From Streptomyces sp. HUAS CB01 (lineage in GTDB: Bacteria; Actinomycetota; Actinomycetes; Streptomycetales; Streptomycetaceae): 64,000 nt of DNA. The stretch lies in contig NZ_CP129137.1 of NCBI RefSeq assembly GCF_030406905.1, positions 4,174,001 to 4,238,000 of the forward strand, given 5' to 3'. Both the position numbers and the translations under genes were made by a program. Positions 2,766 through 16,954 of this stretch are shown piece after piece. The notes under the pieces were generated by a model. That model searched no databases. It had not been told where the DNA came from and saw only the letters and a list, made by a program, of their open reading frames with translations. Each line of letters begins with the position of its first letter. The stretch's first letter is position 1.

Positions 2766-4880
2766 TCAGGCGGGCGCGTGCTCCCGGTCCCCGCTCGGCC
2801 GGGGCAGGCCCTCCGGCCGGCCGAGGCCCCGGAAGAGACGGCCCGGCCACCAGAACCGGCGCCCGAGGTCCAGGGCGAGGGCGGGCACCAGGACCGTACG
2901 GACCAGAAGGGTGTCGAGGAGGACGCCGATGCCGACGAGCACTCCCATCTGGGCCATGGTCACCAGGGGCAGTCCCGCGAAGACCGCGAAGGTCGCGGCG
3001 AGCACCGCACCGGCCGAGGTGATGACGCCTCCGGTGCTGGTCAGACCCTCCAGCACGCCCGGGACGTGCCCGAGGCGCCCGGTCTCCTCCCGCACCCGGT
3101 GCATGAGGAAGATGTTGTAGTCGATGCCGAGCGCCACCAGGAAGACGAAGCCCGTCAGCGGGATCGACCAGTCGACCCCGGCGTGCCCGAGGACGTGCTC
3201 GAAGAGCAGGTTCGAGGCGCCGAGAGCGGCGAAGTAGGAGAGCACGACCGTACCGAGCAGCAGCAGCGGCCCGACCAGCGACCGCAGCAGCCAGACGAGG
3301 ACGAGCAGGACGACGGCGAGGACGGCGGGGATCACCGTGCGCAGGTCGCGGGCGGCCGCGCGCTGGGTGTCCAGGGTCTGGGCCGTGGTCCCGCCGACCA
3401 GGGTGACGGAGCCGTCGTGGCCCCGGTCGGCGGAGTGCACGGCGGCGCGCAGCCGGTCGACGGTGTCCTTGGCGGCACCGCTGTCGGGGGCGTCCTCCAG
3501 CACCACGGAGAGCGCGGCGAGTTCACCGTCCGGAGTGCGGTCGCCGTCCTCCACCCGGGCGACGCCCGGCACCTCGGACGCGACGGCCCGGACCTCGGCG
3601 GCCCGATCCGCCGCCACGACGATCCTGGCCGGGTCGGAGGCGCCCGACGGGTAGTGGGCGGAGATCCGTTCCTGGGCGACCACCGACTCCGGCTTGTCCT
3701 GGAACATCTCGGACTGCTGCAGGCCCATGTTCATCCCGGTCGCGCTGAGCGCCAGCACGCAGGTGACGGCGGCGGCCATCAGCCAGGACCAGCGGGGGTG
3801 CCGGGCGACCGCCGCGCCGACGCGGGACCAGACCGTGTGCGCCTTGCGGGCGGGGGTGCGGTACCGGGGCACGAACGGCCAGAACACCCAGCGGCCCGCG
3901 ATCACCAGCAGCGCCGGCAGGACCGTGACCATGGCGAGGAAGCCGCACACCACCCCGACCGCGCCGACGAGTCCCATCGACCGGGAGGAGTTGATGTCGG
4001 CGAGGGCGAGGCAGGCGAGCCCGACCGCGACGGTGCCGGCGGAGGCCAGGACGGCGGGGCCGGAGCGCCGCAGCGCGACCGCCATCGCCGTGTGCCGGTC
4101 CTCGTGGCGGTGGAGCTCCTCCCGGTAGCGGGCGATCAGCAGCAGCGCGTAGTCCGTGCCGACGCCGAAGACGAGCACCATGAGGACGCCGGCGCTCTGC
4201 GGGTCGACGGGCAGGTGCGCGTACCGGGCCAGCAGATACGTGCCGACCTGGGTGAGCACGGCCGCGAAGCCGACGGCCAGCAGCGGGAACAGCCACAGCA
4301 CCGGGCTGCGGTAGGTGACCAGCAGCAGAACGGCCACCACGAGAGCGGTGGCGATCATCAGGGTGGAGTCGAGGCTGTCGAAGACGGCGACCTGGTCCGT
4401 CAGTGAACCGGCCGGGCCGCCGACCGCCGCTTCCACGCCCGGCGGGGCGCCCTCGCCGGCGATCCGGCGCATCTCGTCGAGGGTGCCGGTCAGTCCGTCC
4501 TCCTCGGTGGAGAGCGGGACCACGGTCATCAGCGCCTCGCCGTCGTCTGACGGGAGTGGCGGGGCGACCTGCTCGCCGTCGGCCGCGAAGCCGGCGAAGA
4601 CGGCCCGGTCGGCGTCGGCCTTCGCCCGCGCGCCGTCACCGGTGTAGACGACGACGGCCGGCATGACCGTGTCGTCACGGAACCTCTCCAGCTCCGTGTT
4701 GACCCGCGCGGACTCGGCACCGCGCGGAAGGAAGGCGTTGGCGCCGGTGTCCTCGACCTCGCCCAGCCTGCCCGCGAGCGGGCCGAGGGCGACGGCGAGC
4801 AGCAGCCAGACCGCGAGGACGAGCCATTTCGTGCGGCGGCCCCCTGGGGCGGTGGCCACGCGCGTGAGCAGCGCGTTCAT
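2766..4880 (-). CDS. MMPL/RND-family membrane exporter
   Basis: A 704-residue transporter of the MMPL branch of the RND superfamily. These proteins export lipids or small hydrophobic products using the proton gradient. The layout is helix 1 (about residues 15-33), a periplasmic loop, a first MMPL helix bundle with the signature GVLMVLVFGVGTDYALLL, a second loop, and a second bundle with FLVALGIDYNIFLMHRV. Each bundle thus carries the Asp-Tyr pair used for proton relay. The ATG at 4880 is preceded by AGGAG. It appears monocistronic, and the substrate cannot be told from sequence. Confidence 0.9.
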   Translation of the reverse strand: MNALLTRVATAPGGRRTKWLVLAVWLLLAVALGPLAGRLGEVEDTGANAFLPRGAESARVNTELERFRDDTVMPAVVVYTGDGARAKADADRAVFAGFAADGEQVAPPLPSDDGEALMTVVPLSTEEDGLTGTLDEMRRIAGEGAPPGVEAAVGGPAGSLTDQVAVFDSLDSTLMIATALVVAVLLLVTYRSPVLWLFPLLAVGFAAVLTQVGTYLLARYAHLPVDPQSAGVLMVLVFGVGTDYALLLIARYREELHRHEDRHTAMAVALRRSGPAVLASAGTVAVGLACLALADINSSRSMGLVGAVGVVCGFLAMVTVLPALLVIAGRWVFWPFVPRYRTPARKAHTVWSRVGAAVARHPRWSWLMAAAVTCVLALSATGMNMGLQQSEMFQDKPESVVAQERISAHYPSGASDPARIVVAADRAAEVRAVASEVPGVARVEDGDRTPDGELAALSVVLEDAPDSGAAKDTVDRLRAAVHSADRGHDGSVTLVGGTTAQTLDTQRAAARDLRTVIPAVLAVVLLVLVWLLRSLVGPLLLLGTVVLSYFAALGASNLLFEHVLGHAGVDWSIPLTGFVFLVALGIDYNIFLMHRVREETGRLGHVPGVLEGLTSTGGVITSAGAVLAATFAVFAGLPLVTMAQMGVLVGIGVLLDTLLVRTVLVPALALDLGRRFWWPGRLFRGLGRPEGLPRPSGDREHAPA

Positions 4881-4995
4881 GAGTAGTCTCCTGGGGGTGG
4901 AGTTCGGGGCGCACGGGACCCGCACCGCGGCGTGAAGGTTGCCGACCTGCCGCGGAGTCACGGGTGCCGTGGGCCTGGGACGTTGTGCTCCATGG

Positions 4996-5027
4996 GCACG
5001 GCCGGGAGTTGCAGCTCCCGGCCGTGC
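4996..5027. terminator. Perfect 13-bp hairpin terminator
   Basis: Arms GCACGGCCGGGAG and CTCCCGGCCGTGC with a 6-base loop. It lies beyond the tandem repeat downstream of the ArsR-like/membrane protein unit on the minus strand and probably ends its transcript. It would also isolate the MMPL promoter. Confidence 0.6.
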
Positions 5028-5040
5028 CGTTCGTCGTGAT

Positions 5041-5205
5041 GTGACCGGGCCGATCGCCGTGGTGCGCGGGGCCCGTCGTCGTGGTGTGACCGGGCCGATC
5101 GCCGTGGTGCGCGGGGCCCGTCGTCGTGGTGCGACCGGGCCGATCGCCGTGGTGCGCGGGGCCCGTCGTCGTGGTGCGACCGGGCCGATCGCCGTGGTGC
5201 GCCGG
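5041..5205. repeat. 45-bp tandem repeat, about 3.7 copies
   Basis: Units begin at 5041, 5086, 5131 and 5176 and are nearly identical. Each starts GTGACCGGGCC or GCGACCGGGCC and contains GATCGCCGTGGTGCG. The last unit decays after about 30 bases. The 45-bp period is a multiple of three, so reading frames stay open, but no protein homology is visible. It lies between the 3' end of the small membrane gene (5221) and the terminator at 4996. Confidence 0.9.
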
Positions 5206-5220
5206 GTCGGCGGGTGCGCG

Positions 5221-5478
5221 CTACTCGATGGAGCGCATCATCTTCTCCATCGAGGCGATCGAGGTGCGGGCCTGCGTCAGCTCCTCCAGCGTGCGCCGGT
5301 GCAGCTCGACGTTGTCCTCCAGCAGCTCGGCGTACCTGGCCGCGAGCCGCTTGTACTGCTCCTCGCGGGCGGCGAGCATCCTGGCCCGCCAGGTCGCGGC
5401 GACCTGCCACACGACCACCATCAGGAAGAGGAAGACACCGCCGGCACCGACCGCTCCGGCCCAGTCCGTTGAGTTCAT
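5221..5478 (-). CDS. Small single-helix membrane protein with coiled-coil tail
   Basis: An 85-residue protein I do not recognise by family. Residues about 8-28 form one hydrophobic helix (VGAGGVFLFLMVVVWQVAAT). The rest is charged and helical (RARMLAAREEQYKRLAARY), ending MRSIE, and looks like a cytoplasmic coiled coil. The ATG at 5478 overlaps the stop of the upstream ArsR-like gene by 4 bases, so the two are co-translated. By analogy it may be the membrane effector or sensor controlled by that regulator. Confidence 0.75.
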   Translation of the reverse strand: MNSTDWAGAVGAGGVFLFLMVVVWQVAATWRARMLAAREEQYKRLAARYAELLEDNVELHRRTLEELTQARTSIASMEKMMRSIE

Positions 5479-5831
5479 TTCGCCGTCTCCTTCACGGTCT
5501 CTTTCTCCTCCTGGGTGATCGTCGCGGCCGCTCGTGCGACCGCTTCCGGGGTAAGGGCGACGGCGAACGGGGTGACCTCGAAGTACTTCACGGCCTTTCC
5601 GTCCGCCGCCTGCTCCAGCGAGCCCGTGACGAGCCCGGCGGCCTCCAGACGCTGCAGGTGCATGTGCAGAAGGGGCCGTCCGATGCCCAGTTCGCGGGCG
5701 AGCCTGCTGACGTAGTCGCGGCCGCCCTCGGCGAGCGCCGCGACGATCCGCAGCCGGTGCGGATTGCCGAGCGCCGCGAGGATCCGCAGCAGTTCGTCCC
5801 CGGTCGGGTGCGGGGCCGTTCCTCCGGTCAT
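5475..5831 (-). CDS. ArsR/winged-helix transcriptional regulator
   Basis: A 118-residue DNA-binding protein. The winged HTH covers about residues 10-80, with LLRILAALGNPHRLRIVAAL followed by the recognition region SRLARELGIGRPLLHMHLQR. The C-terminus (EVTPFAVALTPEAVARAAAT) ends in a lysine/glutamate tail. The ATG at 5831 has AAGGGGG seven bases upstream; a GTG at 5834 is the alternative. No metal-binding Cys motif is visible, so the ligand is unknown. Two perfect TGTCA-N8-TGACA repeats lie 20-75 bases upstream and suggest autoregulation. Confidence 0.88.
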   Translation of the reverse strand: MTGGTAPHPTGDELLRILAALGNPHRLRIVAALAEGGRDYVSRLARELGIGRPLLHMHLQRLEAAGLVTGSLEQAADGKAVKYFEVTPFAVALTPEAVARAAATITQEEKETVKETAK

Positions 5832-5853
5832 CACGCCCCCTTCTCGGGCTACC

Positions 5854-6027: not shown

Positions 6028-6699
6028 TCAGGACTGGTCGGCCGTGCGGTCCAGCGGGGGGCGGTCGAGGTGGGGGAGCAGATGGCCCATGCGCTCCCGC
6101 TTGGCCCGCAGATAGAAGATGTTCTCCTCGCGGGGCTGCGTCAGCAGCGGTACCTGCTCGCTGACCTCGATGCCGTGCCGCAGCAGCGCGTCGCGCTTGA
6201 GCGGGTTGTTCGACATCAGCCGCACCGACCGGACGCCGAGGTCGTGCAGCATGTCCGCCGCCACGCCGTAGTCACGGGAGTCGACCGGGAGGCCGAGCGC
6301 GAGATTCGCCTCGACGGTGTCCATGCCCTCCGCCTGGAGCTGCATCGCCTGGAGCTTGGCGAGCAGGCCGATGCCGCGCCCCTCGTGACCCTGGAGGTAC
6401 ACGAGGACACCACGGCCCTCGCTGACGATCGCGCGCAGTGCCGCGGACAGCTGGTCGCCGCACTCGCAGTGGCGTGAGCCGAACGCGTCACCGGTCAGGC
6501 ACTCCGAATGCAGCCGGGCGAGAACGTCCTCTCCCGTGATGTCGCCGTATACCAGCGCGATTTGTTCGTCACCGCGAATACGATCCAGGTAGCCGATGGC
6601 GCGGAAAACACCGTATTTGGTGGACAGTTGGACAGTTGCCATGCGCTCGGTGTTCTTGGCGCGAGCGTCCATGCGGAGAGTGCCATCGCTGTCTGTCAT
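6028..6699 (-). CDS. GTP cyclohydrolase II-family protein, probable formamidopyrimidine-forming variant
   Basis: A 223-residue RibA-fold enzyme that opens the imidazole ring of GTP. Zinc ligands are Cys67, Cys78 and Cys80 (ECLTGDAFGSRHCECGDQ), the catalytic stretch is YLQGHEGRGIGLLAK, and the motif MDTVEANLALG follows. At the position of the conserved catalytic Tyr (Tyr105 in E. coli RibA, sequence KIRAYALQ) this protein has Met119 (KLQAMQLQ). From family knowledge, Met here (S. coelicolor SCO6655) gives an enzyme that stops at the formamidopyrimidine FAPy instead of releasing formate. There is no RibB domain. The ATG at 6699 is probably leaderless. Divergent from a creatininase-family gene that could remove the formyl group. 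Confidence 0.9.
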   Translation of the reverse strand: MTDSDGTLRMDARAKNTERMATVQLSTKYGVFRAIGYLDRIRGDEQIALVYGDITGEDVLARLHSECLTGDAFGSRHCECGDQLSAALRAIVSEGRGVLVYLQGHEGRGIGLLAKLQAMQLQAEGMDTVEANLALGLPVDSRDYGVAADMLHDLGVRSVRLMSNNPLKRDALLRHGIEVSEQVPLLTQPREENIFYLRAKRERMGHLLPHLDRPPLDRTADQS

Positions 6700-6705
6700 G
6701 GCCGG

Positions 6706-6711
6706 ATCCTA
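6706..6711 (-). promoter_or_regulatory. -10 box of the GTP cyclohydrolase II gene
   Basis: TAGGAT on the minus strand ends 6 bases before the ATG at 6699 and no Shine-Dalgarno sequence is present, which fits a leaderless transcript. Confidence 0.5.
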
Positions 6712-6836
6712 TCGGGTAGCCTCTGGCGGGAGTTGTCTTCGGTGTGGAGATCTCGACTGACCGGTGTATTAAGCCGGTTCCGATCGGCCGCATCTCATGG
6801 AACGCAGAAAGTGCGCGGAAAGAAAGGGGCGGGAAC

Positions 6837-7610
6837 ATGACCGACCCGCAGGTACGGCCGCCGGAACCGGGCCTGTTGCCCTTGGACACGACCCGGGACG
6901 CGGGCGAGGGGCGGGCGGACGTCGCGGTCCTGCCGATCGGCAGCTTCGAGCAGCACGGCCCGTATCTCCCCCTGGCCACCGACACGTTGATCGCCTGTGC
7001 GATCGCCCGGGAGGTCGCCGCCGCGTACCCGGTCCACCGGCTGCCGCCGCTGACGTTCTCCTGCTCGCACGAGCACTCCGCCTGGCCGGGCACCGTCAGC
7101 ATCTCCGCCACGACGCTCCATGCCGTGGTGCGGGACATCGCCGAATCGCTCCGGCGCTCCGGCGTCCGCAATCTGGTGCTGATCAACGGGCACGGCGGAA
7201 ACTACGTCCTGCGCAATGTGGTTCAGGAGGCCGTCGGCACCGGCATCCGGATGGCGCTTTTCCCCGGATCGGCCGACTGGAGTGCCGCCCGTGAACGCGC
7301 GGGTGTGGAGACCCCGTCCCACAGCGATATGCACGCGGGTGAAGTGGAGACTTCGATTCTGCTGCATGACCATCCCGAACTCGTACGCCCCGGTCATATG
7401 ACCTCCGATTTCCTTGCCGACGACCGGGAGCATTTGCTCACCCTCGGTCTGCGCCCTTACACGGAGACCGGTGTGGTCGGCCGGCCTTCCCTGGCCTCGG
7501 CGGAGAAGGGTAAGGAATTGCTGGCCGCTCTCGTCGATTCCTTCGACGCGTATTTCTCGCTGCTGGCGGCGGAACGTTCCGCCGCCCCGGCCGGGGAGGG
7601 GGCCCGATGA
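6837..7610 (+). CDS. Creatininase-family amidohydrolase, possible FAPy deformylase
   Basis: A 257-residue metal-dependent amidohydrolase. The family metal and active-site motifs are all present: GSFEQHGPYLPLATDT (about residues 36-51), LINGHGGNY (about 112-120) and the acid/His stretch SDMHAGEVETS (about 160-170). The family includes creatininase, MftE and archaeal ArfB, which deformylates FAPy in riboflavin synthesis. Divergent location from the Met-type GTP cyclohydrolase II and a 4-base overlap with a RibD-like reductase make an ArfB-like role likely. The start ATG follows a purine-rich AAAGGGG. The function is inferred from family and context. Confidence 0.85.
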   Translation: MTDPQVRPPEPGLLPLDTTRDAGEGRADVAVLPIGSFEQHGPYLPLATDTLIACAIAREVAAAYPVHRLPPLTFSCSHEHSAWPGTVSISATTLHAVVRDIAESLRRSGVRNLVLINGHGGNYVLRNVVQEAVGTGIRMALFPGSADWSAARERAGVETPSHSDMHAGEVETSILLHDHPELVRPGHMTSDFLADDREHLLTLGLRPYTETGVVGRPSLASAEKGKELLAALVDSFDAYFSLLAAERSAAPAGEGAR

Positions 7611-8545
7611 GCCGGGGAGGGAGCCCGGCGAACGGCCTTCCCACCGAGCGGCCGGCCGGCGTGCTCGACGCGACCGGCGCCTGGGAGCGCCTGCTGCGCA
7701 TACGGACCGAGGCGGACGCCGCGGCCGCCGGGCTGCGCCGCGACGCGCACGGGCGGTACAGGTGGACGGACGACGTCTCCGCCGAGGCGCACCTCCTCGC
7801 CGAGCGCTACGTGCCGCTCTGCCTGTCGGGCCCGCGCTTCACCTTCGCCCAACTCGGTCAGAGCCTCGACGGATTCATCGCGACCCGCAAGGGCGACGCC
7901 GACTACGTCACCGGCCCCGAGGACCGCGAACACCTGCACCGGCTGCGCGCGCTCTCCGACGCGGTGGTCGTCGGCGCCGGGACCGCCGTCGCCGACGACC
8001 CCCGGCTGACGGTCCGCGCCTGCCCCGGCCCGCACCCGGTGCGCGTCGTCCTCGACCCGCACGGCCGGGTCCCTGCGACACGGCAGGTGTTCACCGACGG
8101 CGCGGCCCCCACCCTGTGGGTGGTCGGTGCCGGCAGCGAGGACGGACGGGTCGCCGCTGACGCCACGGCCGGCACCGGAGTGGACGTACTGGTCCTCCCC
8201 GACACCGCGGCGTTCGCCCCCCGCCGACTGGTGCACGAGCTGGCGCGCCGGGGACTCGGCAGGGTGCTCGTCGAGGGCGGGGGCGTGACCGTGTCCCGCT
8301 TCCTGCACGAGGGCGCCCTGGACCGGTTGTACGTCACCGTCGCGCCGGTGCTGATCGGCGACGGCGTGCCGGGCCTCGCCTTCCCCGGTCCCGACGTGAT
8401 GCGGGACGCGCTCCGGCCGCCCGTGCGCCGCGCCTTCCTCGGCGAGGACACCCTCTTCGAACTCGACCTGCGCGCGACGCAGTCCGGCGAACCACTGGAC
8501 GGCGAGCACGGCGGCACCGGGGAGGGCGGCGGCGAAGGCGAGTAG
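7607..8545 (+). CDS. RibD C-terminal-type pyrimidine reductase
   Basis: A 312-residue protein with the reductase domain of RibD/RIB7 in roughly residues 78-290. Seen are LGQSLDGFIATRKGD, DAVVVGAGTAVADDPRLTVR and LVEGGGVTVSRF. The N-terminal deaminase domain of bacterial RibD is absent and replaced by about 75 unrelated residues. It would reduce the ribose side chain of the deformylated pyrimidine with NAD(P)H, the archaeal/fungal order of steps. Its ATG overlaps the creatininase stop (ATGA). The last 20 or so residues are Gly/Glu-rich and lie antisense to the end of the membrane-protein gene on the other strand. Confidence 0.85.
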   Translation: MSRGGSPANGLPTERPAGVLDATGAWERLLRIRTEADAAAAGLRRDAHGRYRWTDDVSAEAHLLAERYVPLCLSGPRFTFAQLGQSLDGFIATRKGDADYVTGPEDREHLHRLRALSDAVVVGAGTAVADDPRLTVRACPGPHPVRVVLDPHGRVPATRQVFTDGAAPTLWVVGAGSEDGRVAADATAGTGVDVLVLPDTAAFAPRRLVHELARRGLGRVLVEGGGVTVSRFLHEGALDRLYVTVAPVLIGDGVPGLAFPGPDVMRDALRPPVRRAFLGEDTLFELDLRATQSGEPLDGEHGGTGEGGGEGE

Positions 8546-9421
8546 CCCGTAGGCCACGGCAGTGCTCAGTCCCTGGGCACTGCCCAGGCCGGCGGCGCCG
8601 AAGGCCCAGGCGGTGACACCTTCCCGGGGGCCCCAGCCCCCCACGTTCAGCGGCAGGGCCATCGCGAGCAGCGCCAGCACCATCAGGGGCAGCAACTCGG
8701 CCGCGGCGGCCGTCGATCCGGCGGCCCGGGCGGCGAGGAGGAACATCGCGAGATGCCCCGCCAGCACCGCGACGGAGGAGACCAGCACTCCGGGACCGTG
8801 GCGCCGGCCGAGGAACGCCACCCGCGCCTCGGCCAGCGTGCCGCGGACCGCGCGGCCCCACCGCGAGCCGGCCGTACCGCCCCGCCGCCGTACCGCGACC
8901 GCGGCCACCAGGCAGACCGACGCCGCGAGGACCACGGCCGCACCGGGTGTCAGGACGAACTCCCGGAGGACCCCGCCCGCCCGGTCCAGCGGCCGTGACG
9001 GATGCGCCACCAGCAGCACGGCACCGACGGCCACCAGGACCGCCTGCCCCGCCACGCGCTCGAGGACGACGGCGCGCACCCCCCGGCCCACGGAGCCTTC
9101 GCTCCGCCCGTGCCGCACCGCGCGGTGCACGTCACCGGCCACCCCACCGGGCAGCGCGGCGTTCAGGAACAGGGAGCGGTAGTAGTCGGCGACGGCCGGG
9201 CCGAGCGCCAGCCGGATGCCCAGCGCCCGTGCCACCAGGCACCAGCGCCACGCGCTCAGCACCGTCGTGAACAGGCCGATGCCCAGGGCGGCCAGGAGCG
9301 TGGGCGCGTCGACACCGCGCAGCCCGTCCACGAACGCGCCGGTGCCCTGCCACCACAGCGTCGCCGCGACCAGTGCCGCCCCGGCGAGCATGCCGAGCCG
9401 CCCCCGGACCGCCCTGATCAC
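8471..9421 (-). CDS. UPF0104/LPG-synthase-like multipass membrane protein (3' end unresolved)
   Basis: The conserved part is about 317 residues with around eight hydrophobic helices. It includes SAWRWCLVARALG, NAALPGGVAGDVHRA and a late MALPLNVGGWGPREG, hallmarks of the lysylphosphatidylglycerol synthase TM/UPF0104 family (flippase-like and glycolipid-associated proteins). The start is a GTG at 9421 overlapping the methyltransferase stop. Conservation stops near LAVQWFAGL at 8480, but the frame has no stop until 7457, which would add 338 residues antisense to the reductase gene. The coordinates cover only the believable part. Either a real long overlap or an indel near 8470 explains this. Confidence 0.7.
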
Positions 9422-10371
9422 GAGGCGCCGCCCGTCCGCCCGGGCAGTGCCAGCACATCGCTGTGATGGACGACGACGCTCAACTCGCCTGCCTCGCACG
9501 CCTCCAGACGCCGCCGCAGATACGCGTCGGCGCGCGAGGCGAGGTCCGGCCGCTGGTCCCGCGCCGCGCCGACCCAGCCCCGCAGCCACTCCGCCGTCAG
9601 CTGCCGCGACAGCCGCTCGTCCGGCGCGTGGCCGTCGACGCCCACGGCGCCGGAGGCCGGCACCGCGTCCGCGGAGGTTCCCGCCGCGGAGCCCAGCCGC
9701 CACGGGCTGGTCTGCACCCGCACGGTCATGCCCCGGCGGGCGAACGCGACGGACGCCGCCGCGACCGCGTCGGGCCCGAGCAGCCGGCGGCCGTGCTCCT
9801 CACGGCGCTGATGCGCGTTGAAGGCGTCGGTGATCTCGTCGTCCATCGGGTCCGCCGGGGCGAGGTCCACCCGCCCCACCACCGACAGCGCCAGCAGCAC
9901 CGGGCAGCCGGCGCCGGCGCAGGCCGCGACCAGCCCGTCCAGCTCCTCCCGGGTGAGCAGGTCCAGCAGCGCGGACGCCGTCACCAGCGAGGTGCCCTTG
10001 AGCCGTTCCGCCGTCAGACGGGAGACGTCACCGCGCTCCGTGGCGACCGTGACGGGGCTGCCGTCCGCGGCCGTACGGGGCAGCCGGGTGGCGGCCAGTT
10101 CGAGCAGCCGGGGGTCGTGGTCGTGCAGGATCCAGTGCTGGCGGCCGCTGAGCCGGGGCGCCAGCCAGCGGCCCATCGAACCCGTGCCGCAGCCCAGGTC
10201 CCGGATCACCAGGGGGGCGATCCGCCCGTGCCGGTCGGCCGGCGCCGCGCCGGAACCGGGCAGACGCAGCCGCAGCGGCTCCAGGAGTTCGGGCGCTCGG
10301 GCGGCGGCGTCGGCGGCCTCCCGCAGCGCCAGCCACTCCGGCGCGTAACGCGTGACATCGGTCGTACTCAC
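9418..10371 (-). CDS. Class I SAM-dependent methyltransferase
   Basis: A 317-residue protein with the SAM-binding motif I IRDLGCGTGSMGRWLA near residue 55, an acidic HDHDPRLLELA motif II, and TERGDVS further on. The C-terminal third is variable and ends ALPGRTGGAS. The substrate is unknown; in this cluster a pterin-like or glycosylated product is plausible. The GTG at 10371 overlaps the glycosyltransferase stop, and its own stop overlaps the next start. It is thus the third of four tightly coupled genes. Confidence 0.85.
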   Translation of the reverse strand: MSTTDVTRYAPEWLALREAADAAARAPELLEPLRLRLPGSGAAPADRHGRIAPLVIRDLGCGTGSMGRWLAPRLSGRQHWILHDHDPRLLELAATRLPRTAADGSPVTVATERGDVSRLTAERLKGTSLVTASALLDLLTREELDGLVAACAGAGCPVLLALSVVGRVDLAPADPMDDEITDAFNAHQRREEHGRRLLGPDAVAAASVAFARRGMTVRVQTSPWRLGSAAGTSADAVPASGAVGVDGHAPDERLSRQLTAEWLRGWVGAARDQRPDLASRADAYLRRRLEACEAGELSVVVHHSDVLALPGRTGGAS

Positions 10372-11561
10372 ACGGCCTCCAGGGGATTCTGCCGGAGTTG
10401 TTCCAGCGCCTTGGCCAGGCTCCGGGAGGTCGACTCCCAGCCGGCCAGTGCGGTGCGCCGCCGTCGCGCGGCCGTCTTCGAGCGGTGCCGCTCGCCGGGC
10501 TCGGTGAGCCATCGGCGCAGGGCCGCGGCGAGCGCCGCCGGGTCCCGCGGCGGCACGAGCGTGCCGGGCACGCTGCCGTCGGGCGCCCGCCCGACCGCTT
10601 CCGGCAGCCCGCCGACAGCCGTCGCCAGTACGGGGATGCCGCGCGCGAGCGCCTCGGTGGCGACCATCCCGTACGTCTCGGTGTGCGAGGCGAGTACCAG
10701 CAGGTCGGCGGCCGCGTAGCTCGCGTTCAGTTCGGGGCCGGACCGGGGGCCGGCGAGGCGCACCCGGCCGTCCAGTCCGTGCTCCGCGATCAGTTCCCGG
10801 AGCCGGGCGACATAGTCGGGGTCGTGGCCGGTCCCGCCCACGAGGTCGCACGTCCACGGCAGTCCGGCGACGGACGCCAGGGCCTCGACCAGGAGGTGCT
10901 GCCCCTTGCGCGGGGTCACGGAGGCCACGCAGAGCAGCCGGGGGCCCCCACGGTCCCGCGCGGCGCCCGGTCCCGGGAGGGCGGGCGCGCCGGTCGCGGT
11001 GCCGGGCGCGAGCGGCGCGACATCCGCACCGGGGAAGGCGACATGGACCCGTTGAGGGTCGAGACCGTGGTGCTCCACGAGCCGTCCCGCCGCCCACCCG
11101 CTGGGCGCCACGACCGCCGCCGCCGCCCGCAGCGTGGTGCGTTCCGCGGCGTCCAGCTCCGCGGCCACGGCCGGGGCGAGCCCGGTCTCGTCGCCCAGCG
11201 GCAGATGCACCAGCACAGCCAGCCGCAGTCGCTCCGCCTCGGGCACGACGACGTCGGGGACCCCGCACGCGACGAGTCCGTCGAGGAGGACCAGGCTGCC
11301 GTCGGCCGACTCGCGGAGCACCCGGGCCAGTTCGGCGCGCGGACCGGCACCGGGCCGCGGCCACCCGCCCGCGACGGCGTGCTCGTGGACCTGCCAGCCG
11401 ATCCTGGGCAGTTCACGGCACACCCTGCGGTCGTAGACGTTGCCGCCGCTCGGTGCGGCCGGATCGTCCACGCCCCCCGGCATGACGAACCGGACGGTGC
11501 GTTCGGGCGCTCCGGCGGCGCCGTGCTCCGGGGGGCGTGTGGTCACGGAGCCCGCTCTCAC
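10368..11561 (-). CDS. GT4-family glycosyltransferase
   Basis: A 397-residue retaining GT-B glycosyltransferase. The N-terminal acceptor domain has [18 protein letters not shown]. The C-terminal donor domain has [15 protein letters not shown] and the diagnostic EX7E motif in [20 protein letters not shown]. The GTG at 11561 overlaps the stop of the PTPS-like gene (GTGA). An ATG further upstream at 11585 in the same frame would lie wholly inside that gene and is less likely. It is predicted to attach a sugar to the cluster product or a lipid carrier. Confidence 0.87.
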
Positions 11562-11956
11562 AGATCCCGCTCGTAACTCGCCCACGCGATGTGCGACTCG
11601 TGCAGCGTGACCGAGACGCCGGACAGTCCGCGCGCCCCCTCGCCGAGCGCTCCGGTGTGCACCCGGTCCGCGAGCCGGTCGGCGATGACCTTGGCCAGGA
11701 ACTCCGTGGAGGTGTTGGTCCCGGCGAACTCGGGCACCTCGTCGAGATTGCGGTAGTTGAACTCCCCGACCACGGAACCCAGTTCGGCGGTGGCGAGGCC
11801 GATGTCGACGACGAGATTGTCGGCGTCCAGCTCGGCACGGCGGAAGGTGGCGTCCACGAGGTACGTCGCTCCGTGCAGACGCTGCGCGGGCCCGAAGACC
11901 TCGCCGTGGAAGCTGTGAGCGATCATGAGGTGCTCACGGACGGTGACGCTGAACAA
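11558..11956 (-). CDS. 6-pyruvoyl-tetrahydropterin synthase/QueD-fold protein with altered active site
   Basis: A 132-residue tunnelling-fold protein. The start is taken as TTG at 11956 because GGAGG lies nine bases upstream and the product begins LFSVTVREH at the usual domain boundary; an ATG at 12010 is the alternative. Compared with E. coli QueD, the first zinc His is kept (IAHSF). The catalytic Cys is Ala and the second His of the HGH zinc motif is also Ala (AQRLHGATY). The DHH motif reads NYR ([10 protein letters not shown]). The Glu of LHESHIAW is retained. It probably binds a pterin or pyrimidine but is unlikely to perform the standard reaction. First gene of the PTPS-GT-MT-membrane unit. 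Confidence 0.8.
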
Positions 11957-12338
11957 CGGCTGTGACCTCCCGGTCGTACGGCTCGGCCGCCGGCGGGCGG
12001 CCGTGTTCATCAGTACGGCCGGAGAGTACTGCCCGTTCAAAGGCGCAGGTCGTTCGGAATCCCGCCTGGTCCGGGCGTGGCGGGGGGCTGCGCGCCGGGC
12101 ACCGGACGCGGCACGCGGGGGCCCACCCGGGAGGAGCCGTGCGGGGTCGGTCGGGCGCGGTGACGAAGCGTGGTGCGCGGCGGCTCGGGTGCGGTACCGG
12201 GCGCTGTGGGGTGTGAGGTTGGGGCCCGGCGTCGCGGCCTGGTGCGCGGCCGGTCGGCCCTGGTCCAGCGGGCGCGGTGCGCGGCGGGACCGGTCAGGCC
12301 GCTCGATGCCGTGGTGTCCCGCGGCCCGGACCGGCCGG
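11957..12338. other. Intergenic region between dehydrogenase and PTPS-like gene
   Basis: 382 bases of GC-rich DNA with several GTGCGCGGC-type words and no clear gene, hairpin or promoter. An in-frame upstream ATG for the PTPS-like gene at 12010 falls here. Confidence 0.5.
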
Positions 12339-13319
12339 CTACTCGGTGTCGTACACCACCCGGTGGCACAGGCCCGGGAGTTCACCCGCGGCGATCCGCG
12401 CCATCACCGACGGCAGTTCCTCGAAGGCGCACTCGCCGGTGATCAGCGCGTCGAACACGGGGTCCGCGAGCAGGTCGAGCGAGAGCGCGAGGCGGTCGGC
12501 GTAGCTGCGTCGCGAACGCCGTGCCTCCGCGACCCGTCCCACCTGGCTGCCGCGCAGGACCAGCCGGCCGGAGTGGAAGGCCTCGCCCAGCGGCAGGCTG
12601 ATCCTCCGGTCGCCGTACCAGCTCAGCTCCAGCACCGTGCCCTCCGGCGCGAGCAGTTCCAGCGAGCGGGTCAGACCGGCCTCGGTGGCACTGGCGTGCA
12701 CCGCCAGGTCGCAGTCGCCGAGGGCCTCCTCCGGAAGGGCGAAGTCGACACCCAGCGCCTCGGCCAGTCCGGCCCGCGAGGGGTCCGCGTCGATCAACTG
12801 CACCCGCACGCCCGGGTACCGGGCGAGCAGCGCGGCGACCGAGCCGCCGATCATCCCGGCGCCGACGACCGCGATCCGGTCGCCCACCAGGGGCGCGGCG
12901 TCCCACAGGGCGTTGACCGCGGTCTCCACCGTCCCCGCGAGCACCGCCCGTCCGGCGGGCACCGTGTCCGGCACGGGGGTGACCGCACTCGCCGGAACGA
13001 CGTAACGGCTCTGGTGCGGATGGAGGCAGAACACCGTCCGGCCGAGGAGGCGCCCCGGCCCCTCCTCCACGACGCCGACGCTCAGATAGCCGTACTTGAC
13101 CGGCCCGGGGAACTCGCCCTCCTGGAAGGGCGCCCGCATCGCCGCGTACTGGCTCTCCGGCACCCCGCCGCGGAAGACGAGGCTCTCCGTGCCGCGGCTC
13201 ACCCCGGAGCACAGGCTGCGCACGACGACGTCGCCCTCGTCGGGCTCCGCCAGACGAACATTCCGAATCTCGCCCTGACCTGGGGAATTGAGCCAGAAGG
13301 CGCGTGCGACGCGCTCCAT
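12339..13319 (-). CDS. MDR-family (BchC-like) dehydrogenase
   Basis: A 326-residue medium-chain dehydrogenase/reductase. The N-terminal domain carries the BchC-like signature [15 protein letters not shown] and [15 protein letters not shown]. The Rossmann domain has [20 protein letters not shown] followed by the acidic [10 protein letters not shown], which predicts NAD preference. The GHE catalytic zinc signature of classical alcohol dehydrogenases is missing. The ATG at 13319 has GGGAGG seven bases upstream. It is transcribed towards the PTPS-like gene with a 382-base gap and probably oxidises a hydroxyl group of the cluster product. Confidence 0.82.
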
Positions 13320-13434
13320 CCACGACCTCCCGCTGAACACTCCCGCGACGGTTTACGTTCTGAAAATCATGAGACCGCGCACACCGTACGCGGCACTCGT
13401 CGACTCTGTCACACGTCCGGAGGGTGGTACCGCG

Positions 13435-14226
13435 GTGGCCCTGATCGGCACCTACGAGACTCGGCTGCTGCGCCCGGAGACGGCAGCGGGGGCGGGCGCG
13501 CAGACGGTCCTGCTGGTCCTGCTGGACGCGGCGGCCGGACTGGGCGCCGCCGGCTGGCTGGCGGGCGCCGCGTTCACGGTCGCGACGTGGGCGCTGCTCA
13601 CACGTGCCCTGCACCGGTCGTGGCCGCCGAGGCCGTTCGGTCCCGCGAACGCCGTCACGCTGGTCCGGACGACGCTCGTCGGCGGGGTGACCGCGCTCGT
13701 CGCGGAGTCCTTCGCGAGCGGACCGCGGACCACCGCCCTCGTCGCGCTGACGGCGGTGGCGCTGGTCCTCGACGCGGTCGACGGCCAGGTCGCGCGGCGC
13801 ACCGGGACGGAGTCCGCGCTGGGCGCGCGCTTCGACATGGAGGCCGACGCCTTCCTCATCCTCGTGCTCAGCGTCCACGTGGCCGCCTCACTGGGCGCGT
13901 GGGTGCTGCTGATCGGCGCGATGCGGTACGTGTTCGTCGCCGCGGCGCAGGCACTGCCGTGGCTGAACGGCCCGCTGCCGCCGAGCATGGCCCGCAAGAC
14001 CGTGGCGGCGCTCCAGGGCATCGTCCTGCTCGTGGCCGCAGCCGGCCTGCTCCCCGTCGTGGTCGCGTGGTTGCTCGTCCTCGCCGCACTGGCCTCCCTC
14101 GTCTGGTCCTTCGGCCGTGACATCAGGGGCCTCTGGTGCGTCAGGGCACGCGACGGCGCCCCTGTCGCGCGCCCGTCCCGGCCCCGTGCCGCGGTGGTAC
14201 GGGAACGGGCGCACGAGCAGGTCTGA
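13435..14226 (+). CDS. CDP-alcohol phosphatidyltransferase family protein
   Basis: A 263-residue membrane enzyme that transfers a phospho-group from a CDP-alcohol to an acceptor alcohol. The full catalytic motif is present: DAVDGQVARR, then G-ARF-D-MEA-D at about residues 105-133, that is D-x2-DG-x2-AR-x8-G-x3-D-x3-D. About six helices are predicted. The start is a GTG at 13435 with GGAGGG ten bases before it; an in-frame ATG at 13369 lacks a ribosome site. It is divergent from the dehydrogenase and convergent with the sulfatase, from which it is separated by a terminator. Confidence 0.85.
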   Translation: MALIGTYETRLLRPETAAGAGAQTVLLVLLDAAAGLGAAGWLAGAAFTVATWALLTRALHRSWPPRPFGPANAVTLVRTTLVGGVTALVAESFASGPRTTALVALTAVALVLDAVDGQVARRTGTESALGARFDMEADAFLILVLSVHVAASLGAWVLLIGAMRYVFVAAAQALPWLNGPLPPSMARKTVAALQGIVLLVAAAGLLPVVVAWLLVLAALASLVWSFGRDIRGLWCVRARDGAPVARPSRPRAAVVRERAHEQV

Positions 14227-14764
14227 CCCGCCGGCCGGGTCGGGGGTGGCGGGCGCGGGGGGCCCGCCACCGGCCCGGCCGGTGCGGCGAAAGGCCCCGG
14301 CCGGGGGAAACGGCCGGGGCTTTTCGCATGGCGCGCTGCGAGCGCGGGCCGTCGGGCGCACCAAGGGCCGCGGCCCGGGGCGGGCGGCACGCGGCGCGGT
14401 GCGCCGACGCAACCGGAGGGCCGGGTGCGGGCCTTCGGACGGGCGCCGGGGTTGCGGGCGCCGAGGTTGCGTGAGTTGAGGGGGCACGGGGAGCCGAGGC
14501 CACGGAGGGGCGAGGCTGCGCGGGACGGGGCGGCACGCGCGGGACGGGGCGCCGGCGTCCGGTCCCGCCTTGAGGCAACGGGGGCTGAGGGCAAGGGAGC
14601 CGCGACCGCCCGGAGTCGAGGCCACGGGGACGCCCGGAGTCGAGGCCGCGGGACCGCCCGGGTCGAGGCCGCGAGGACGGGCACCGGCATGCGCGCGGGG
14701 ACGGGACCGGAGGCTGCCGAGGCCCGTCCGTGCGCGTGCGTGGGTCCGGCCGGCGTCGCGCCTC
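14227..14764. other. 538-base intergenic region with terminator and 24-bp repeats
   Basis: No gene is seen. It holds the hairpin at 14290-14324 and three imperfect 24-bp repeats (units starting 14607, 14631 and 14655, core CGCCCGGAGTCGAGG). The remainder is featureless GC-rich sequence. Confidence 0.6.
14290..14324. terminator. Terminator between convergent genes
   Basis: Stem GCCCCGGCCG / CGGCCGGGGC extended by AAA/TTT pairs, with a 7-base loop and TTTT on the plus side. It serves the CDP-alcohol transferase gene and, from the other side, the sulfatase. Confidence 0.85.
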
Positions 14765-16954
14765 TCAGCGCCGCGCCGCCGTCGCCGTCCCCGGGCGGTC
14801 GCCGTAAGCGGAGAGGAACCGGTCCCGGAAGGCGTCCATGCGCCAGACCGGGGCGTCAGGACCGGGCCTGAGGCCGGGCTGCCAGTCCCAGTCGGAGACC
14901 CGCTCCAGCACGGCCGGGTCGCGGGCGAGGATCGAGACGGGCACGTCCCGGCCGAACCTGTCCTCCGTGACCGTGGACACGGGCTGGTGGTCGCCGAGGA
15001 ACACGAGCACCGTGTTCTCGTCGCCGTACTTCTCCACGTACGTGATGAGGGTCGTCAGCGAGTACTCGATCGCACGCCGGTACTCCGTGCGGACCTGCGC
15101 CGGGTCCTTCCAGACCTCCTCGGGGTCCTTGCCCGACTCCTCGATGGCGTCGTAGACGGATCCGTCACCGATCTCGTCCCAGCCGAGCGTCCTCGGTATC
15201 GGTGCCCACGGGTTGTGGCTCGACGCGAGGATGATCTCCGCCATCATCGGCCCGCGGCCCGGCTTTCCGTGCTCCAGGCGCTCGAACGCGGACAGGCTGT
15301 ACTGGTCCGGCACCGGAGTCCAGCTGAACTTCGGCCCCTTGTAGCCCATGGTGCGCGAGTCGTACACGTGGTCGAGACCGTAGAACTTCCCCTCCGGCCA
15401 GGACCGGGTGACGCCGGGCATGATGCCGACGGTCCGCCAGGCCCCCGTCTTCCGGAAGGCGCTGGTGAGCGTCATGCGGTCGCCGGACGTGAGGTTGCGG
15501 TACCGCTGCTGGTTCTTGATCCACAGGCCCGAGTTGAAGGTGGAGTGCGCCAGCCAGCTCCCGCCGCCGTAGGTGGGGGACGTGAGGAACGCGCTCCGGG
15601 AGGACCAGCCGGCCGCGCGCAGCCGGCGGTCCCCGTCCGCGAGCAGCGCGGAGACCCGCGGCGCCATCTCGGGGTCCTGGACCGCGCTGCGCCCGTAGCT
15701 CTCGATGAAGGCGAAGATGACGTCCTTGCCGCGCAGTCCGGTGAGCAACCGGTCGGCGGGTACGTCGGCGAAGTCGTCGTCGGCGGACTCCCGGGCGAAC
15801 TCCTCCTTGTCCCGCAGCCCCGCGCGCACCTGCTGCACCCGGTCCTGGAGGAACTCGGCCGAGCTGCCCGCCGCGACGGGCACGGCCGTGTTCCGCACAC
15901 CCAGCGCGGCGCACAGGACCCACACCGTCCCGAGCACGAGCGTGCCCCCCGCGGCCGCGGCGCCGTGACGGGCCAGCACGCGGTTCAGCCGTACGGTCGC
16001 CCACGCGAGGAGGACGAGCAGCAGGAGCACGAGGACGACGACTCCGACCACGACCGCGATCGCGCCCGCCGGCCCCATGGAGTCCCGGAGGAACGACTGG
16101 CCGTCGTCGAGGAGGATCCAGTCGAGCACGAGGTCGAACGGTCGCTTGTAGACCGCGTCGAACCCCATGTCGAGCAGCTTGAGCACGACCATCAGACCCA
16201 GCGCCGTCCCGACGACCGCCGGTACCGAGCGCCTCACCCGGCCGGAGCCCACCGGCCCGAGGAGCAGCAGCACGGCGACGCCGCAGATCCCCTCCACCGG
16301 TATGCGGAGGAACATCGGCACCGTGAGATGCCCGAGCTTGTTCGGCAGGAGCAGCGCGGCGAGGACGAGCACGGCGGCCAGGGCGGTGGCGCCGTGGCGG
16401 ACCACGAGGGACGCGCGGGCCCCGACCGGGTTCCGGCCCCGGCGTCCTGTGGCGTCGCTGCCGGGTGCCACAGGACGCTCACCGTCCCGGGCCCTGTCAC
16501 CGTCCCGGGCGCCGTCCTGGGGTCGGGCCCCGTCACCGTCCCGGGCCCTGTCACCGTCCCGGGCGCCGTCCTGGGGTCGGGCCCCGTCACCGTCCCGGGC
16601 CCTGTCACCGTCACCGTCTTGTTCACGGTCACCGTCGGTGAGTGTCCCCGCGGCCGCGGTGCCCTCGGCCCGGGCGCCCCCGTCGTCCTTGCTCGTGACG
16701 TCCTGACCCGTCGTGCTTCCGACGTCCTGACCTGCGCTCGCCCGGTGAGCATCCTCTTCCGCAGCGGTTCCGCGGTCCGGCACGCCCTCCGGAGGGCCGT
16801 GCCGGGAGCCGTCGGGTGCGAGCCGGGCGCCGGCGTCCGTGCCGGTGTCCGTCCCGGTTTCCGAGGCCGGAGCCGTGGCCTGGGCCGGCAGCCGGCTTGA
16901 GCGTGTCCAGAGCGCCACCCGAAGGTCCTTCCGCGCAGGGCCGGTGATCGGCAT
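14765..16954 (-). CDS. LtaS/MdoB-like membrane sulfatase-family protein
   Basis: A 729-residue protein. Residues 1-165 are disordered, acidic and basic, with an 18-residue tandem repeat (DGDRARDGDGARPQDGAR). About five transmembrane helices follow (residues 180-350), then an extracellular alkaline-phosphatase-fold domain. Motifs are FAFIESYGRSA, TYGGGSWLAHSTFNSG with probable nucleophile Ser/Thr, and LGDHQP near the end. The family transfers phosphoglycerol or hydrolyses sulfate or phosphate esters outside the membrane. The neighbouring CDP-alcohol transferase suggests work on the same polar headgroup. The start ATG at 16954 has a weak ribosome site. Confidence 0.82.
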   Translation of the reverse strand: MPITGPARKDLRVALWTRSSRLPAQATAPASETGTDTGTDAGARLAPDGSRHGPPEGVPDRGTAAEEDAHRASAGQDVGSTTGQDVTSKDDGGARAEGTAAAGTLTDGDREQDGDGDRARDGDGARPQDGARDGDRARDGDGARPQDGARDGDRARDGERPVAPGSDATGRRGRNPVGARASLVVRHGATALAAVLVLAALLLPNKLGHLTVPMFLRIPVEGICGVAVLLLLGPVGSGRVRRSVPAVVGTALGLMVVLKLLDMGFDAVYKRPFDLVLDWILLDDGQSFLRDSMGPAGAIAVVVGVVVLVLLLLVLLAWATVRLNRVLARHGAAAAGGTLVLGTVWVLCAALGVRNTAVPVAAGSSAEFLQDRVQQVRAGLRDKEEFARESADDDFADVPADRLLTGLRGKDVIFAFIESYGRSAVQDPEMAPRVSALLADGDRRLRAAGWSSRSAFLTSPTYGGGSWLAHSTFNSGLWIKNQQRYRNLTSGDRMTLTSAFRKTGAWRTVGIMPGVTRSWPEGKFYGLDHVYDSRTMGYKGPKFSWTPVPDQYSLSAFERLEHGKPGRGPMMAEIILASSHNPWAPIPRTLGWDEIGDGSVYDAIEESGKDPEEVWKDPAQVRTEYRRAIEYSLTTLITYVEKYGDENTVLVFLGDHQPVSTVTEDRFGRDVPVSILARDPAVLERVSDWDWQPGLRPGPDAPVWRMDAFRDRFLSAYGDRPGTATAARR
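16483..16608. repeat. 54-bp in-frame tandem repeat in the sulfatase gene
   Basis: Two complete units (16483-16536, 16537-16590) plus 18 bases of a third. They encode the 18-residue charged repeat of the cytoplasmic N-terminus. Copy number probably varies between strains. Confidence 0.9.

What the first reader, a model, noticed from the sequence alone, without database searches (positions are those of the whole stretch)
6028..16954. Candidate undescribed biosynthetic system: glycosylated, methylated pyrimidine/pterin with membrane partners
Ten genes in one block combine a FAPy-type cyclohydrolase, probable deformylase, reductase without deaminase, PTPS-fold protein, GT4 glycosyltransferase, methyltransferase, BchC-like dehydrogenase, UPF0104 membrane protein, CDP-alcohol transferase and LtaS-like sulfatase. 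Four minus-strand genes overlap by GTGA and two plus-strand genes by ATGA, so they work together. No polyketide or peptide synthetase is present. The enzymes suggest a decorated pteridine or pyrimidine, possibly lipid-linked. I know of no described product for this combination.
Basis: inference. Interest (0 to 1): 0.85.

Follow-up and report, generated by a model that had tools for sequence, protein, structure and literature searches.

The report
Conserved actinomycete GTP-derived pyrimidine glycoside cluster
Many soil actinomycetes carry the same block of genes, which appears to turn GTP into an unknown sugar-decorated and methylated pyrimidine or pterin compound, and the pattern of genes gained and lost together reveals its first chemical steps.

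Summary
The ten genes are present as described. Eight form a conserved unit (GCH II, creatininase, UPF0104, methyltransferase, GT4, PTPS-like, BchC-like, CDP-alcohol transferase): all eight occur in 54 of 62 well-flanked loci, under 14 genus names. RibD_C is common; the sulfatase-like gene is accessory.

New evidence bears on the first steps. In creatininase-linked loci GCH II lacks the tyrosine recalled as needed to release formate (Met 61, His 13 of 74). Clusters without creatininase use GCH II of another lineage that keeps it (36 of 36). The creatininase is therefore very probably the FAPy deformylase, an activity shown for its relative BrbF. The methyltransferase is also mostly swapped for an unrelated FkbM type where missing (10 of 12 loci).

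The PTPS-like protein is orthologous to SCO6650 (PDB 3d7j) and lacks the PTPS catalytic residues.

Best reading: GTP to FAPy to diaminopyrimidine, often ribityl-reduced, then T-fold and dehydrogenase steps, glycosylation, methylation and membrane handling. One orthologue appears sporulation-induced. The product is unknown. S. coelicolor homologues were partly studied, so this is not wholly new.

The parts
6028..6699 (-). GTP cyclohydrolase II paralogue, Met119 at the switch position; predicted FAPy-forming
   Evidence: PF00925 E 2.3e-65; TIGR00505 224 bits over cut-off 205.85; Met where 31 of 31 best-scoring long-frame GCH II sequences have Tyr
6837..7610 (+). creatininase-family amidohydrolase; predicted FAPy deformylase
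   Evidence: PF02633 E 5.1e-67; co-varies with loss of Tyr in the GCH II
7607..8545 (+). RibD_C reductase without deaminase domain; common but not universal; ATGA overlap with creatininase
   Evidence: PF01872 E 1.7e-38; in 33 of 43 streptomycete loci with all eight core genes
8522..9421 (-). UPF0104 / LPG_synthase_TM multi-pass membrane protein; predicted flippase or exporter part (frame stays open to 7457)
   Evidence: PF03706 E 3.4e-33
9418..10371 (-). class I SAM methyltransferase; FkbM type found instead in some relatives
10368..11561 (-). GT4 glycosyltransferase with E-x7-E motif
   Evidence: PF00534 E 3.4e-31; best PDB sequence match 3c4q, E 6e-21 over residues 156-379
11558..12010 (-). 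PTPS-like T-fold protein, orthologue of SCO6650, PTPS catalytic residues lost
12339..13319 (-). BchC-like medium-chain dehydrogenase (outside the BchC equivalog)
   Evidence: PF00107 27.6 bits, below cut-off 31.8; TIGR01202 42 bits against cut-off 291
13369..14226 (+). CDP-alcohol phosphatidyltransferase with intact DG-AR-G-D-D motif (motif recalled)
   Evidence: PF01066 E 2e-14; motif conserved in alignment
14765..16954 (-). LtaS/sulfatase-like membrane protein; accessory
   Evidence: PF00884 E 0.014, below cut-off; hit at 50 bits or more in 22 of 80 loci

Best explanation
This is a conserved actinomycete pathway that diverts GTP into a 2-amino-4-oxo-pyrimidine (or pterin) metabolite which is glycosylated, methylated and probably moved across, or fixed to, the membrane. 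Step 1: the GCH II paralogue opens GTP but, lacking the switch tyrosine, stops at FAPy (product shown for SCO6655 by others, recalled; here inferred by residue). Step 2: the creatininase-family enzyme removes formate to give 2,5-diamino-6-ribosylaminopyrimidinone 5'-phosphate (strongly inferred from co-variation). Step 3: where RibD_C is present, the ribosyl chain is reduced to ribityl without deamination, so the 2-amino group stays (inferred). Step 4: the T-fold protein, which keeps the Glu but has lost the PTPS catalytic residues, and the BchC-like dehydrogenase remodel or oxidise the intermediate (inferred; chemistry unknown). Step 5: GT4 adds a sugar and the SAM methyltransferase (or an FkbM enzyme) adds a methyl group (inferred). 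Step 6: UPF0104, the CDP-alcohol transferase and, in some clusters, the LtaS-like protein do membrane handling or lipid or phosphodiester attachment (weakly inferred). The pathway may run mainly in differentiation and sporulation (inferred from two expression tables).
For: Synteny: all eight core genes in 54 of 62 well-flanked loci found by creatininase, and in 22 Streptomyces loci found by PTPS (17 of 18, the miss being a contig end; 5 of 5 main-copy loci). Co-inheritance: MT 39 and PTPS 41 of 101 Streptomyces; all 39 have PTPS. Switch residue: creatininase-found loci Met 61 and His 13 of 74 (window plus the 73 of 80 loci whose GCH II could be extracted); best-scoring long-frame GCH IIs 31 of 31 Tyr. 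PTPS-found loci: 22 with creatininase all Met, 36 without creatininase all Tyr, 12 with no GCH II in the stretch. Lineage: the 36 Tyr-type cluster GCH IIs fall, with nine stand-alone RibA-type genes, in a branch apart from the Met/His group (split support 0.989, branch 0.42), so the front end was recruited at least twice. Precedent: BrbF of Sinorhizobium, annotated creatinine amidohydrolase, deformylates this same compound. RibD_C, of another subtype, is in 31 of 34 Micromonosporaceae loci that have GCH II. FkbM methyltransferase is in 10 of 12 loci lacking MT and 2 of 28 with MT (one member checked by Pfam). A second GCH II and a RibD-like gene are elsewhere in the genome. Expression: SCO6652, by gene order the MT orthologue, has log2 0.8, 4.3 and 4.1 at 24, 48 and 72 h relative to first mycelium.
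Against: No metabolite has been seen. The creatininase misses the ArfB model (38.1 bits against 180) and MftE model (139.3 against 172) cut-offs, so its reaction rests on co-variation and precedent. RibD_C is missing in 10 of 43 streptomycete and in most other creatininase-bearing clusters with all eight core genes (present in 35 of 62 overall), so the ribityl step is not universal unless a housekeeping enzyme does it. The CDP-alcohol gene was not found within about 9 kb in 10 of 40 Micromonosporaceae loci, and UPF0104 was not found in L081, L084, L088 and L105, so the membrane part may vary. L069 has only GCH II and creatininase; L091, L099 and L108 have creatininase alone. Of 36 Tyr-type genomes, 10 carry a creatininase homologue of 55-59% identity elsewhere, 1 a fragment, 9 only weaker or partial matches, and 16 none at E 1e-5; absence from the cluster is thus not absence from the genome in all. 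The loci are related, so the 58 co-variation cases are few independent events. SCO6652 being the MT orthologue is counted from locus tags, not read. In the flux table that lists SCO6655, another S. coelicolor GCH II (SCO2687, -0.52) is listed too.
Confidence: 0.62

Rival explanations
1. A second flavin route: the cluster feeds extra diaminopyrimidine into riboflavin or a flavin analogue, like the proposed BrbF module of Sinorhizobium.
For: GCH II, formamidase and RibD_C are exactly the early steps; BrbF precedent.
Against: No deaminase, RibB, RibH or RibE domain in the ten genes; another GCH II (701-residue frame) and RibD_C (430-residue frame) lie about 3 Mb away; patchy presence (41 of 101 Streptomyces); T-fold, dehydrogenase, GT4 and MT are unexplained.
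Confidence: 0.12
2. A split GTP cyclohydrolase I: GCH II and creatininase make APy phosphate, and the T-fold PTPS-like protein catalyses Amadori rearrangement and ring closure to a neopterin-type pterin that is then glycosylated.
Confidence: 0.15
3. Two linked modules: a pyrimidine or pterin module and a separate polar-lipid module (CDP-alcohol transferase, GT4, UPF0104, LtaS-like, IMPase) making a phosphatidyl-glycoside, sharing regulation only.
For: CDP-alcohol protein weakly resembles archaetidylinositol phosphate synthase (26 bits against 180); IMPase family gene in 10 loci; GT4 best NCBIfam match MshA, 109 bits against 462.5.
Against: The GT4 lies between PTPS and MT with tight spacing (|gap| 30 bp or less in 42 of 45 PTPS-GT4 and 47 of 61 GT4-MT pairs); a distant relative keeps BchC-PTPS-GT4 only (L151).
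Confidence: 0.1

Closest known systems
S. coelicolor SCO6650 (PDB 3d7j) and SCO6655 (Spoonamore et al. 2006)
   Same: SCO6650 is the direct orthologue of the PTPS-like protein (81% identity). SCO6655 is recalled to be a FAPy-forming GCH II with Met at the switch residue. Locus-tag spacing fits the same gene order.
   Different: Only single proteins were studied, as far as recalled; no product was seen in any of our searches. The 2006 paper was seen only as a reference entry.
BrbF formamidase, Sinorhizobium and Brucella (PMC9478397)
   Same: Creatininase-annotated enzyme that deformylates the same FAPy compound; its authors say the partner FAPy-forming enzyme is still unknown in those bacteria.
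   Different: Serves riboflavin there; here it sits beside a GCH II that has lost its Tyr, inside a glycosylation cluster.
Archaeal ArfA/ArfB/reductase route
   Same: Same reaction order: FAPy, deformylation, reduction before deamination (order recalled).
   Different: ArfA is unrelated to GCH II (recalled); creatininase here scores 38.1 against the ArfB cut-off of 180.
QueD / 6-pyruvoyltetrahydropterin synthase
   Different: Cys to Ala24, Asp-His to Asn67-Tyr68, one zinc His to Ala30 (roles recalled).
Cyanobacterial pteridine glycosides (tetrahydrobiopterin glucosyltransferase)
   Same: A GT4-type enzyme gluing a sugar to a pterin; it appears among structure-library sequence matches.
   Different: Match is distant (E about 3e-7) and no better than many other GT4 enzymes.

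Membership tests
GTP cyclohydrolase II (TIGR00505) | score over curated cut-off | tested here: met
   224.3 bits against 205.85
Canonical (APy-forming) GCH II | Tyr at the switch position (role of this Tyr recalled from Spoonamore 2006) | tested here: not met
   Met119; 0 of 74 creatininase-linked sequences have Tyr, 31 of 31 best-scoring long-frame ones do
FAPy-forming GCH II (SCO6655 type) | product is FAPy | not testable with these tools
   only the residue could be tested
Creatininase-family FAPy formamidase (BrbF/ArfB function) | creatininase family (PF02633) | tested here: met
   226 bits against 31.3
Creatininase-family FAPy formamidase (BrbF/ArfB function) | deformylates FAPy | not testable with these tools
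   only co-variation with the GCH II switch residue
ArfB equivalog (NF033501) | score over curated cut-off | tested here: not met
   38.1 against 180
Mycofactocin MftE (TIGR03964) | score over curated cut-off | tested here: not met
   139.3 against 172
QueD/PTPS enzymes | T-fold | tested here: met
QueD/PTPS enzymes | catalytic Cys and Asp-His, three zinc His (roles recalled; compared with PDB 2g64) | tested here: not met
   Ala24, Asn67-Tyr68, Ala30, invariant or 90% or more in 24 orthologues
BchC (TIGR01202) | score over curated cut-off | tested here: not met
   42.3 against 291.25
Riboflavin pathway | deaminase, RibB, RibH, RibE partners in the block | tested here: not met
   none among the Pfam matches of the ten genes and of selected neighbouring frames from about 0.7 to 24 kb

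The most novel reading that the evidence does not exclude
Sporulating actinomycetes make a previously unknown class of GTP-derived glycoside: a 2,5-diamino-6-ribitylamino-pyrimidinone (or pterin made from it) carrying a methylated sugar and exported or lipid-anchored in aerial hyphae and spores, perhaps as a UV screen or redox shield. The SCO6650-type T-fold protein would be a new enzyme class acting on it.
Probability: 0.3. Interest if true: 0.82.

Novelty: new variant of a known kind. Interest (0 to 1): 0.62.

Why it matters
Among the best 120 listed, those with a name are nearly all called 6-carboxytetrahydropterin or 6-pyruvoyl synthases, which the lost catalytic residues contradict. The cluster is shared by many actinomycete genera, and none of the ten paper searches (listed under Tried and rejected) showed a product for it. 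The Tyr/creatininase co-variation names a likely substrate, so the product can now be sought with labelled guanine and by in vitro reconstitution from FAPy. It also points to a bacterial pair of FAPy-forming and FAPy-deformylating enzymes, where the BrbF authors could find only the second in rhizobia.

Tried and rejected
Chance neighbourhood: rejected by synteny over many families. Mycofactocin: MftE cut-off not met; no search for its precursor peptide was made. WhiG-type promoter (recalled consensus, up to two mismatches in its second half) in the two divergent intergenic regions: no match in 58 and 56 sequences; dropped. Methyltransferase fold search gave many SAM methyltransferases of mixed substrate, so no substrate could be named; the PDB sequence search had no match at E 1. 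GT4 donor and acceptor could not be assigned. CDP-alcohol acceptor could not be assigned. The LtaS-like protein found no LtaS in the PDB sequence search. L185 and L186 are second PTPS copies in genomes G020 and G084 with no other core gene nearby: function unknown.

GCH II trees: the first gave the Met/His group as one clade (0.969). With 50 more sequences none of five simple clade tests held. One search shows why for the Met/His group: one extra Met member (L243) joined it, and it lies in a cluster with all eight core genes, creatininase included. The long-frame set is not one clade in that tree. The 14 lower-scoring GCH II genes added there were picked by hand; 13 have Tyr, one (L243) Met. 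A further divergent locus (L248, a 7.9 kb contig: GCH II, RibD_C and BchC-, PTPS- and GT4-like genes of 30-36% identity) has Tyr and no creatininase hit; it is not in the 36.

Paper searches, all ten. Only open-licence papers are held. The 2006 SCO6655 paper and a guessed DOI for the SCO6650 structure paper were not held; what they contain is recalled.
Full report
OBSERVATION. The block was re-read gene by gene. Pfam matches nine of the ten genes (the dehydrogenase and methyltransferase weakly), and the LtaS-like one gives only a sub-threshold sulfatase hit. The genome (8.1 Mb, six contigs) has two GCH II genes. The other, in a 701-residue frame taken to be RibBA by its length, lies about 3 Mb away, near a RibD_C match in a 430-residue frame, so flavin supply probably does not depend on this block.

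CONSERVATION. A scan of named genomes with the creatininase gave 211 relatives, of which the best 80 were kept. Of 62 with at least 7.5 kb on both sides, 54 hold all eight core genes. The eight exceptions are L069 (GCH II and creatininase only), L091, L099 and L108 (creatininase only), and L081, L084, L088 and L105 (no UPF0104 hit). Counting all 80 loci, 62 hold all eight, under 15 genus-level labels, one of them a metagenome bin. In several Pseudonocardiales and other loci the order is rearranged but the genes stay together.

A second sample was chosen by the PTPS-like gene. Of 18 Streptomyces loci, 17 hold all eight and one is cut by a contig end; five further main-copy Streptomyces loci hold all eight. 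Two incomplete ones (L183, L184) lie at contig starts, and two (L185, L186) are second PTPS copies without the cluster. Across 101 Streptomyces genomes the PTPS-like gene is in 41 and the methyltransferase in 39, and every genome with the second has the first. Across 396 genomes drawn from the phylum it is in 10 at E 1e-20, and in 100 of 150 of one other family.

THE NATURAL EXPERIMENT. SCO6655 of S. coelicolor is recalled to stop at FAPy because Met replaces a Tyr. In the window GCH II that residue is Met119. Among 74 creatininase-linked sequences (the window and the 73 of 80 loci whose GCH II could be extracted, L069 included) it is Met in 61 and His in 13, never Tyr. In 31 long-frame GCH II sequences (30 of the best Pfam scores from 60 genomes of the class, and the window's own second copy) it is always Tyr.

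Two clusters found by the PTPS-like gene showed no creatininase, and both had Tyr; one of them (L182) is a 3.8 kb contig. To test this, 40 more loci from the second family were fetched: 0 of 40 have a creatininase hit, 34 have GCH II, and all 34 have Tyr. In all 70 PTPS-chosen loci the split is 22 Met with creatininase, 36 Tyr without, and 12 with no GCH II in the stretch. The Tyr-type cluster enzymes group with stand-alone RibA-type genes (0.989), apart from the Met/His group. The front end was therefore recruited at least twice, each time so as to end at APy. This is the main new evidence. The sequences are related, so 58 loci are not 58 independent events. Of the 36 Tyr-type genomes, 10 have a creatininase of 55-59% identity elsewhere, 1 a fragment, 9 only weaker or partial matches, and 16 none.

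A creatininase-annotated enzyme with this very activity, BrbF, was shown in Sinorhizobium and Brucella; I read the abstract, sections 6 and 10, and found passages. Its authors state that the matching FAPy-forming enzyme is not known there, and that the reactions of more distant homologues remain open.

TIMING. In a transcriptome study (table passages read, PMC3610822) SCO6652 has log2 ratios 0.8, 4.3 and 4.1 for substrate, aerial and sporulating stages against first mycelium. Counting tags between SCO6650 and SCO6655 in a cluster without RibD_C makes SCO6652 the methyltransferase; this is inference. SCO6655 is listed in PMC2853524 (one passage read) among genes anticorrelated with predicted flux (-0.61), most of which rise in stationary phase; SCO2687, another GCH II, is listed as well.

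VERDICT. The block is a real, widespread and unassigned biosynthetic unit. Steps 1-2 are well supported, step 3 moderately, and the rest follow from enzyme families only. Parts were studied by others before, so the novelty is a new variant built on known enzyme kinds rather than something categorically new.

Noticed in passing
window 7457-8522: The UPF0104 reading frame stays open for about 1 kb beyond the domain, antisense to RibD_C; relatives also vary in length (300-771 aa), so the true stop is unclear.
   Followed up: partly
window 16480-16640: Low-complexity repeat of DGDRARDGDGARPQDGA type in the N-terminal part of the LtaS-like protein.
   Followed up: no
L185 and L186: Two Streptomyces genomes have a second, lone PTPS-like copy (75% identity) with no other core gene nearby.
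   Followed up: partly
L216, L224 and ten other loci: FkbM methyltransferase near the cluster, mostly where the usual methyltransferase is missing.
   Followed up: yes
L089, L090, L101, L110: Inosine-uridine nucleoside hydrolase gene beside the creatininase.
   Followed up: partly
L076, L081, L082, L084, L088: Small DoxX-like membrane protein gene in or beside the cluster.
   Followed up: no
L090: Rhodococcus rhodnii carries a cluster in the same order as, and with GCH II close to, those of Kibdelosporangium and Actinosynnema, suggesting transfer.
   Followed up: no
Micromonosporaceae genomes outside the cluster: Creatininase homologues of 55-59% identity elsewhere in 10 of 36 Tyr-type genomes, some reported with an internal stop or beside fragments.
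   Followed up: no
window 2766-5834: MMPL transporter and ArsR regulator next to the block: both have hits near the cluster in L032, ArsR alone in L033 and L034; weak or distant hits in L090 and L111.
   Followed up: partly
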